DNA from: an uncultured Lachnospiraceae bacterium
GTDB lineage: Bacteria; Bacillota; Clostridia; Lachnospirales; Lachnospiraceae
Reading direction: 5' to 3'
NCBI GenBank assembly: GCA_951800145.1
Contig: CATOJE010000026.1
Span: forward strand, 1-45,164
Length of the DNA stretch: 45,164 bases
Under the pieces are notes generated by a model. That model made no database searches. It was not told the DNA's origin and was given only the letters and a program-made list of their open reading frames with translations. A program made the position numbers and the translations under genes. Shown piece after piece: positions 7,211-7,646 of this stretch. Position 1 is the first letter of the stretch. Every line of letters begins with the position of its first letter.

Positions 7211-7646
7211 TCAGGAGTGGGAGATACTCCCGGGCTTTAGGGATGCTTTTCGAAGCGGCCCTTGGGGTGCCGTGGGCGCTGCCCTTCGGTATATCGAGTA
7301 TGCTCCGCTATTAATAGATAACGATGTTTCGCAGGTTCGAATCCTGCCGTGTCTGGTACACGTAGCTAAGTGGTATAGCAATCGTCCATATTTGCATCGG
7401 TTCATGCAAAGAAAACCATCCGGGAAAGGATATCGCCTGGTTCCTGGCCGCAAGGCAGTCTGTGAGACAGCCAGCGCTGGTCCAGATACCGCTTTTTGAT
7501 TCGTCCTATCCGGCTGTGCCAAGGTGACAGGGAGGCGCGGTCAGAGGGAGAAGGAATCAAGCTGCTTACGGTCCGGCCCCTGTCTCATGGATTGGAGCCA
7601 GGAGAGGTCTTTGCCCAAAAAACACGTTAGAAAGAAGGGAATGAGA
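7211..7646 (+). other. Gene-free, highly structured 436-nt stretch between rtcB and slipin
   Basis: No credible protein is encoded here, but hairpins are dense: GGGAG-ATA-CTCCC (7219-7231); GGGC...GCTT-TTCG-AAGC...GCCC (7232-7261); TGCCG-T-GGGC-GCT-GCCC-TT-CGGTA (7268-7291); the permuted tRNA module (7321-7385); TTTGCAT-N6-ATGCAAA (7391-7410); GGC-A-GTCT-GTG-AGAC-A-GCC (7454-7472); and GACAGGG/CCCTGTC (7526-7584). CGGTAT (7287-7292) could instead pair with ATACCG (7486-7491), which is followed by C and five T. That would give an RNA of about 210 nt with paired ends and a U-tail. Boundaries are not certain. Confidence 0.6.
7313..7392 (+). ncRNA. Circularly permuted tRNA-like module; probable bacterial Y RNA (YrlA class)
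   Basis: Read in order: anticodon-like stem 5' strand ACGAT (7321-7325); variable loop GTTTC (7326-7330); T-arm GCAGG-TTCGAAT-CCTGC (7331-7347); acceptor-like hairpin CGTGT-CTGGT-ACACG (7348-7362); T8-A9 equivalents (7363-7364); D-arm GCTA-AGTGGTA-TAGC (7365-7379); A26 equivalent; stem 3' strand ATCGT (7381-7385). AATA (7313-7316) and TATT (7389-7392) extend the stem after an internal loop. Every stem pair is Watson-Crick and the conserved T8, A14, G15, G18G19, A21, C48 and T-loop bases are present. The acceptor ends are joined, so it cannot be aminoacylated. YrlA-type Y RNAs, which tether Ro60 orthologues, have such a module and lie near rtc genes in Salmonella. Fold is seen directly; Y RNA identity is inferred. 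Confidence 0.75.

What the first reader, a model, noticed from the sequence alone, without database searches (positions are those of the whole stretch)
7313..7392. Complete circularly permuted tRNA fold between rtcB and slipin: likely Y RNA with tRNA mimicry
Seen: T-arm, closed 5-bp acceptor hairpin, T8-A9, D-arm and a stem replacing the anticodon stem occur in permuted order with no mismatch, and with the tertiary-contact bases A14, G15, G18G19, A21, C48 and a TTCGAAT T-loop. Known: YrlA-type bacterial Y RNAs carry such a module with a sealed acceptor end and are linked to Rsr (Ro60 orthologue) and Rtc genes in Salmonella. Inferred: this is a Y RNA made in one transcript with the RNA ligase RtcB. 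No rsr gene is in the window.
Basis: partly seen in the sequence, partly recalled or inferred. Interest (0 to 1): 0.92.

Follow-up and report, generated by a model that had tools for sequence, protein, structure and literature searches.

The report
tRNA-mimic RNA beside slipin genes
Between an RNA-repair gene and a slipin gene lies a conserved sequence that, as RNA, forms a shuffled but complete imitation of a transfer RNA; similar elements precede relatives of this slipin gene in Clostridia, in Proteobacteria including many E. coli, and in a Verrucomicrobium, which suggests an unrecognised RNA partner for a protein of the stomatin-vault family.

Summary
The permuted tRNA-like module at 7318-7388 covaries strongly (32 sequences, 19 pairs, 92.3% of 608 cells paired, 15 pairs with changes on both sides, 0 of 500 shuffles as good) and matches Rfam YrlA over positions 23-85 only (37.6 bits, cut-off 69). 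'Y RNA' is half right. The module sits in a longer conserved RNA with a second covarying hairpin. No Ro60/TROVE gene was found in this genome or 35 related ones, with a model that detects clostridial TROVE at 3e-34 or better. The constant neighbour is slipin, not RtcB: a T-arm lies within 700 nt upstream in 40 of 42 slipin-clade loci (26 of the 27 fetched by protein alone); shuffles give 0.43, control SPFH genes 0 of 7. The pairing reaches E. coli (1621 of 5426 genomes hold the locus), Citrobacter, Burkholderia, Photobacterium and one Verrucomicrobium, some with unpermuted tandem tRNA-like elements. Best reading: a tRNA-elbow-mimicking partner RNA of a soluble slipin in RNA-repair regulons, analogous to Y RNA with Ro60. 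Transcription and binding are untested.

The parts
5886..5931 (+). Conserved promoter/operator-like element (TTCGCAATGTTTTTTAAATGAT, then TAAGAT at 5926-5931) upstream of rtcB
   Evidence: Pattern found in 25 of 46 related rtcB loci scanned (some of the 46 are the same genomes), with or without slipin, and once per strand in the window; read by eye directly upstream of the RNA where rtcB is not between (L004, L009, L182, L183, L185, L186, L187)
5975..7210 (+). rtcB, RNA ligase
   Evidence: Pfam RtcB 2.7e-110
3450..5822 (-). Divergent WYL-domain protein, probable regulator
   Evidence: Pfam WYL 9.1e-10, PADLOC WYL 5.2e-16
7239..7262 (+). 5' hairpin (AGGG..CCCT) of the longer RNA
   Evidence: Folds of 7200-7500 and 7211-7330; a similar hairpin seen by eye in related gaps; covariation not counted
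7266..7295 (+). Hairpin P2: GGUGCC..GGUAU with inner stem
   Evidence: 39 sequences: 91.3% of 390 cells paired, 8 of 10 pairs with changes on both sides, covariation 0.475 vs 0.164 shuffled
7318..7388 (+). Circularly permuted tRNA-like module
7321..7325 (+). 5' strand of the stem in the place of the anticodon stem (pairs with 7381-7385)
   Evidence: Helix 1: 5 of 5 pairs with changes on both sides, 89.4% paired
7331..7347 (+). T-arm, T-loop TTCGAAT
   Evidence: Helix 2, 100% paired; GGTTC, the A two places on, and TCC invariant in 32 of 32
7348..7362 (+). Sealed acceptor hairpin
   Evidence: Helix 3: 5 of 5 pairs with changes on both sides, 85.0% paired
7365..7379 (+). D-arm with GG
   Evidence: Helix 4, 95.3% paired
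7484..7491 (+). AGATACCG, form of the 3' motif GGATAYCG
   Evidence: GGATAYCG in 30 of 41 gaps counted (for the window that count rests on 7428-7435); AGATACCG itself seen
7641..8762 (+). Slipin (SPFH/Band 7) gene, start at 7641 or 7647
   Evidence: Pfam Band_7 3e-27; maximum 19-residue hydropathy 1.05, so no transmembrane stretch expected; AF2 model pLDDT 85.5

Best explanation
The rtcB-slipin gap encodes a structured RNA whose permuted module imitates a tRNA elbow and sealed acceptor but cannot decode or be charged. It is the RNA partner of the slipin gene. Proposed mechanism: when a nucleotide- or RNA-damage signal reaches the WYL regulator, or RtcR in Proteobacteria, the operon is switched on; slipin assembles as a soluble ring or cage; the RNA binds it and its tRNA-like part brings tRNA-handling proteins or damaged tRNA to the cage (by analogy, PNPase is brought to Rsr by Y RNA), while RtcB reseals cut RNA. 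Shown here: structure, conservation, linkage to slipin, no Ro60 found. Inferred: transcription, binding, cage, cargo and signal.
For: Covariation of module and of P2. T-arm upstream of 40 of 42 slipin-clade genes, 0.43 expected from base shuffles, 0 of 7 control SPFH genes. 31 of 31 rtcB-slipin loci have it, 15 of 17 rtcB loci without slipin do not. RNA-slipin pairs without rtcB within 1.5 kb in four genomes of three other Clostridia families, and an intact RNA-slipin locus (L004) in a genome where no rtcB of this clade was found. Related arrangement beside rtcR in Citrobacter, and in E. coli. Slipin without membrane stretch. In print: Y RNA tethers PNPase to Rsr, and its tRNA-like domain is modified by DusA and TruB (PMC8394870 passages); an SPFH gene, PaFlo8, lies in the P. 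aeruginosa rtc locus (PMC13086221 passage); rtcB and a slipin gene both rise when TrcR is lost in Anabaena (PMC10272220 passages).
Against: No transcript, binding or phenotype data. An RNA always upstream and on the same strand as slipin could be a leader acting in cis. L009 keeps the flanking elements and slipin but has lost the module, so the module is not always needed. In E. coli and Citrobacter the predicted folds show the acceptor hairpin, but the T-arm is missing or only partly formed. Some relatives carry tandem tRNA-like genes that a tRNA finder calls and that might simply be tRNAs.
Confidence: 0.45

Rival explanations
1. Cis-acting leader: the tRNA-like structure in the slipin mRNA controls slipin expression, for example by being bound or cut by tRNA enzymes.
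For: Upstream of and co-directional with slipin in the loci counted; no terminator-like site on the + strand between rtcB and slipin.
Against: About 250 nt separate the module from the slipin start in the window; tRNA-like form varies widely (permuted, reduced, tandem complete) while T-loop and GG stay, as expected of a protein-binding fold more than of a switch; a known relative, Y RNA, acts in trans.
Confidence: 0.25
2. Decoy for tRNA-cutting nucleases or stand-in substrate: an uncuttable tRNA mimic protects real tRNAs while RtcB repairs cut ones.
For: RtcB linkage; in three Burkholderia loci the tRNA-like element has its anticodon loop replaced by GAAA or AAA (L190, L194, L195); Salmonella authors suggested YrlA might inhibit an anticodon nuclease (PMC7790460 passage).
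Against: Same RNA occurs where rtcB is not adjacent; the anticodon arm, where such nucleases act, is what is missing.
Confidence: 0.15
3. Ordinary Y RNA serving a Ro60 protein encoded elsewhere.
For: Rfam YrlA match, E 1e-6; true TROVE-linked Y RNAs exist in other Clostridia with a similar upstream element.
Against: No TROVE gene in 36 genomes, 25 of them at least 90% complete and at most 5% contaminated; basal stem region not matched in the window.
Confidence: 0.06
4. Remnant of a tandem tRNA pair without function.
For: T-arm/acceptor/D-arm order is what the junction of two tandem tRNAs gives; the models hit such pairs.
Against: Changes on both sides in 15 of 19 pairs; position kept before slipin in Clostridia, Gamma- and Betaproteobacteria and one Verrucomicrobium.
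Confidence: 0.02

Closest known systems
YrlA-type bacterial Y RNA (Rfam RF02553)
   Same: Permuted T-arm, sealed acceptor, D-arm; near RNA-repair genes; elbow bases kept
   Different: Linked to slipin instead of Rsr/Ro60; window match lacks the basal-stem part; embedded in a longer RNA with P2 hairpin and, in most, GGATAYCG; about half of the gaps (22 of 41, one of them read as spurious) have a second T-arm
Salmonella rsr-yrlBA-rtcBA operon
   Same: RtcB with a tRNA-like noncoding RNA
   Different: Ro60 gene there, slipin here; RtcR there, WYL protein here
SPFH/slipin genes tied to RNA repair (PaFlo8 in the P. aeruginosa rtc locus; Anabaena alr0740 controlled by TrcR as rtcB is)
   Same: Slipin-like gene linked to or co-regulated with RNA repair
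   Different: No RNA element was described in the passages seen
Vault particle (major vault protein, TEP1, vault RNA)
   Same: SPFH-fold protein without membrane anchor, tandem beta units before and a long helix after the SPFH domain; RNA partner suspected
   Different: Three beta units, not nine; resemblance is structural and modest; no evidence of a particle

Membership tests
YrlA / bacterial Y RNA | Permuted tRNA-like module with sealed acceptor | tested here: met
YrlA / bacterial Y RNA | Large basal stem formed by 5' and 3' ends that holds Rsr | tested here: inconclusive
   Rfam match in the window covers 23-85 of 114; of 10 matching relatives and the window, three (L058, L061, L063) match 1-114, all below the cut-off
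YrlA / bacterial Y RNA | Ro60/Rsr (TROVE) protein encoded in the genome or beside it | tested here: not met
   0 of 1 own genome (86% complete) and 0 of 36 incl. own; the model detects clostridial TROVE
YrlA / bacterial Y RNA | Score at or above Rfam gathering threshold | tested here: not met
   37.6 vs 69 bits
YrlA / bacterial Y RNA | Binds PNPase; modified by DusA and TruB | not testable with these tools
   Features taken from PMC8394870 passages
tRNA gene | Canonical order with anticodon loop, found by tRNA models | tested here: not met
   ARAGORN none at 7318-7388; Rfam tRNA only 14.5 bits on the T-arm
Vault-like RNP | SPFH shoulder preceded by tandem beta repeats and followed by long helix, no membrane segment | tested here: inconclusive
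Vault-like RNP | Cage assembly containing the RNA | not testable with these tools
   Needs purification and microscopy

The most novel reading that the evidence does not exclude
Slipin and this RNA form a small bacterial ribonucleoprotein related to, or convergent with, the eukaryotic vault: a soluble SPFH protein with tandem beta units, a cap-like helix and a dedicated tRNA-mimic RNA, in the same kind of RNA-repair regulon that elsewhere carries a TROVE protein with a Y RNA. The permuted module would have arisen from the junction of two tandem tRNA-like elements, still seen unpermuted in some Proteobacteria and in one Verrucomicrobium.
Probability: 0.2. Interest if true: 0.96.

Novelty: new variant of a known kind. 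Interest (0 to 1): 0.86.

Why it matters
It gives a clade of slipin proteins of unknown function a likely RNA partner, in organisms that can be tested now, including about three in ten complete E. coli genomes. It separates tRNA-mimicking Y-like RNAs from Ro60, and offers a series (tandem tRNA-like pair, fused permuted module, reduced elbow) for how a circularly permuted tRNA fold can arise. If slipin and the RNA form a particle, it would bear on the origin and purpose of vaults.

Tried and rejected
Folding energy as evidence: no better than shuffles.

RF02553 or model R1 hits alone as evidence of Y RNAs: many are tandem tRNA genes; counts from those searches are therefore not used.

Anticodon-loop mimicry: hairpins beside the module in some relatives have loops CTGTCAA, CTGTAAA or CTGAAAA like tRNA anticodon loops, but others have 3-5-nt loops (read by eye in the parts that were shown); taken as remnants or chance, not claimed.

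A long-range pairing of GGUAUxCC with GGAUACC: dropped, since the upstream strand covaries locally within P2.

Mobile spread: slipin not found in viral contigs or phages, RNA not in phages.

Rfam: in this gap only chance-level matches besides YrlA (E limit 10); in 13 related loci none in the gap but YrlA at E 0.05 (which also gave a Clostridiales-1 match upstream of rtcB in L055 and two tRNAs in L083); (5 loci) gave tRNA and matches elsewhere.

A Foldseek run on the N-terminal model was not obtained; the VIA second look was.

Against my reading: L009 has slipin and flanks but no module; pTM of the slipin model is 0.55; the promoter-like element is also at rtcB loci without slipin (5 of 10 in the first set), so it marks the rtcB regulon, not the RNA; E. 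coli and Citrobacter folds lack the T-arm or form it only in part; single-sequence folds of L093, L191 and L197 do not show their tRNA-like elements as cloverleaves, while L194's does.

Ascertainment: 15 of the 42 loci and 4 of the 31 had been fetched through the RNA itself. Without them the counts are 26 of 27 and 27 of 27 (my recount from the call lists; the window is in both full sets). The slipin query came from a locus found through the RNA.

Not held and therefore not read: Burroughs and Aravind 2016, Chen 2014, Sim and Wolin 2018, Wang 2018, Sim 2020. They may mention slipin or related RNAs.

Full report
What was claimed and whether it is there. Reading the sequence, each arm is where it was said to be, with no mismatch: ACGAT/ATCGT (7321-7325/7381-7385), T-arm 7331-7347, sealed acceptor hairpin 7348-7362, TA 7363-7364, D-arm 7365-7379. 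The minimum-energy fold of 7318-7396 is exactly this, but shuffled sequences fold as well (z -0.29), and in a longer piece, 7313-7422, the anticodon-replacing stem pairs elsewhere; energy proves nothing. ARAGORN and Rfam at its curated scores find only ordinary tRNAs elsewhere in the window. Rfam's YrlA model matches 7323-7383 at 37.6 bits, E 1e-6 in 551 bases, over model positions 23-85 of 114, below its cut-off of 69. In the window's own genome the region has no second copy at E 0.001.

Comparative proof. I took 32 modules from loci in the same genus, the same family and named relatives. RNAalifold finds 18 of the 19 pairs unaided. The sealed acceptor hairpin changes sequence almost freely while staying paired, except its innermost pair (16 of 32); T-loop and D-loop bases that join the elbow stay fixed. 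Left out: identical copies, five modules of another type (L010, L012, L013, L014, L019) and one spurious parse.

A longer RNA. Upstream of the module is a second hairpin, GGUGCC..GGUAU (7266-7295). On 39 sequences, 8 of 10 pairs have changes on both sides, 91.3% of 390 cells pair, and the score is 0.475 against 0.164 (0 of 500). The segments were anchored in part on the outer motif, so the outer pairs lean towards it; the inner pairs, which were not anchored, carry most of the changes. The hairpin is also present in L009, where the module has been lost. GGATAYCG occurs in 30 of 41 gaps, and 22 of 41 gaps gave two T-arm-like matches, one of which (L003) I read as spurious. Besides YrlA, Rfam gives only chance-level matches in the window's gap and none in the gaps of 13 related loci at E 0.05.

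What it is linked to. Among 48 rtcB loci of this clade, distinct over the last 500 bases of rtcB, 31 have slipin downstream and all 31 have a T-arm in the 1050 nt after rtcB; of 17 without slipin, 15 have none (one of these, L071, has only 617 nt of sequence), and two have one: L065, with another gene downstream, and L053, with an unpermuted tRNA-like element (read by eye; ARAGORN does not call it) before a DUF2828 gene. Four of the 31 (L002, L003, L005, L007) had been fetched through the RNA; the other 27 came by the RtcB protein. From the slipin side, a T-arm lies within 700 nt upstream in 40 of 42 slipin-clade loci, with 0.43 expected from base shuffles and 0 of 7 for other SPFH genes. Fifteen of the 42 had come through the RNA or are the window; of the 27 fetched by protein alone, 26 have it. 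The 42 are not all independent: some are close relatives. The misses are L009 and L079; in L079 the T-arm is there but further up. L113 had too little upstream sequence and was not counted. In four genomes of three other Clostridia families the whole composite (P2, module, second T-arm, GGATACCG) precedes slipin with no rtcB within 1.5 kb. In a same-genus genome (G006, 97% complete) the RNA and slipin stand where no rtcB of this clade was found. So the steady partner is slipin. This slipin is rare: 10 of 371 class genomes at E 1e-35.

Not Ro60. TROVE (PF05731) was not found in this genome (86% complete) or in any of the 36 genomes tested, 25 of them at least 90% complete and at most 5% contaminated. 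The model is sensitive enough: it finds the TROVE proteins beside Y RNAs in other Clostridia at 5e-37 and 3e-34 (L158, L155).

Beyond Clostridia. Relatives of this slipin (32-35% identity; one Burkholderia match covers only 57%) occur in E. coli, Citrobacter, Burkholderia and Photobacterium, one is in a Verrucomicrobium (L093) and one in another gammaproteobacterial genome (L197). In Citrobacter the gene is next to rtcR. In the E. coli, Citrobacter and Burkholderia loci I read a sigma-54-like site (TGGCAC-N5-TCGC or similar; consensus recalled, not tested) and then a tRNA-like element. E. coli and Citrobacter have what I read as a reduced permuted form, with compensatory changes between the three sequences compared: T-stem TGGG/CCCA against CGGG/CCCG, acceptor hairpin ATTCAT/ATGAAT against TTTCAT/ATGAAA. 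Their predicted folds show the acceptor hairpin, but the T-arm is missing or only partly formed, so this form is less certain. Photobacterium, L197 and L093 have two tandem unpermuted elements that ARAGORN calls; Burkholderia has one such element, its anticodon loop replaced by GAAA or AAA, after a shorter T-arm-bearing one read by eye. In E. coli, 1621 of 5426 complete genomes hold at least 80% of the RNA-plus-slipin stretch; two annotated regions show no RNA feature there.

How a permuted tRNA could arise (inference). In a tandem pair the order at the junction is T-arm of the first, acceptor strands, D-arm of the second: the order of the permuted module. Relatives with a second T-arm then look like T1, sealed acceptor, D2, hairpin, T2. 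The unpermuted pairs make this plausible, but no tree was made.

Regulation. A promoter-like element TTCGCAACTTTTTTTAAATGAT followed by a TATAAT-like box precedes rtcB in the window (5886-5931) and in 25 of 46 related rtcB loci scanned (some the same genomes), with or without slipin, and stands directly before the RNA where rtcB is not between (read). A similar element precedes two TROVE Y RNAs (L158, L162) and two other Y-like RNAs (L012, L013), but was not found in L155, L014, L010 or L019. A WYL protein (window) or a weak WCX match below its cut-off (L148, L158, L013) is nearby. There is no terminator-like site on the + strand between rtcB and slipin.

Literature. In the held library I found no paper that ties a slipin to a tRNA-like RNA (searches; of the listed papers I saw passages of seven and only listings of the rest). 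Several key papers are not held, so this is not proof of novelty.

Verdict. A real, conserved RNA structure; YrlA-like in its module; by the Ro60 test not filed as a member of the Y RNA family; best seen as a slipin-linked relative or analogue. Its action in trans on slipin is the most likely reading but untested.

Noticed in passing
L189:5463-7916, L192, L193: In E. coli an unannotated tRNA-like element precedes a slipin and a nucleotidyltransferase gene near yjbD and (L189, L193) lysC, in 1621 of 5426 complete genomes; a strain named DH1Ec169 (DH1 being K-12, recalled) matched only over the first 109 bases.
   Followed up: partly
L053 (between rtcB and a DUF2828 gene): Unpermuted tRNA-like element with acceptor GGGAGAG/CTCTCCC and an odd anticodon region, beside rtcB and a DUF2828 protein; read by eye.
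   Followed up: partly
L158, L162, L155, L012-L014: Separate Y-like RNAs, several with repeated TTACTTC-type motifs, beside TROVE proteins or, in L012-L014, beside an ORF of unknown family (the L013 one had no Pfam match).
   Followed up: partly
L093:73-819 and 2231-2379: Verrucomicrobial slipin-rtcB locus with a tRNA array and a tRNA-like gene whose anticodon loop reads as only TTTA.
   Followed up: partly
window 5886-5931 and related loci: Conserved promoter-like element shared by rtcB, slipin-RNA and some Y RNA loci, a candidate WYL operator.
   Followed up: partly
L054, L058, L063, L065: Same 7-nt loop CTGTCAA in hairpins on either side of the module, like an Asp anticodon loop; unexplained.
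   Followed up: no
Rfam RF02553: The YrlA model matches tandem tRNA genes (Pro-Gly, Gly-Gly) at E below 1e-5 per genome; it also rings in 8 of 14 control genomes, cause there not checked. Annotation pipelines could be misled.
   Followed up: partly
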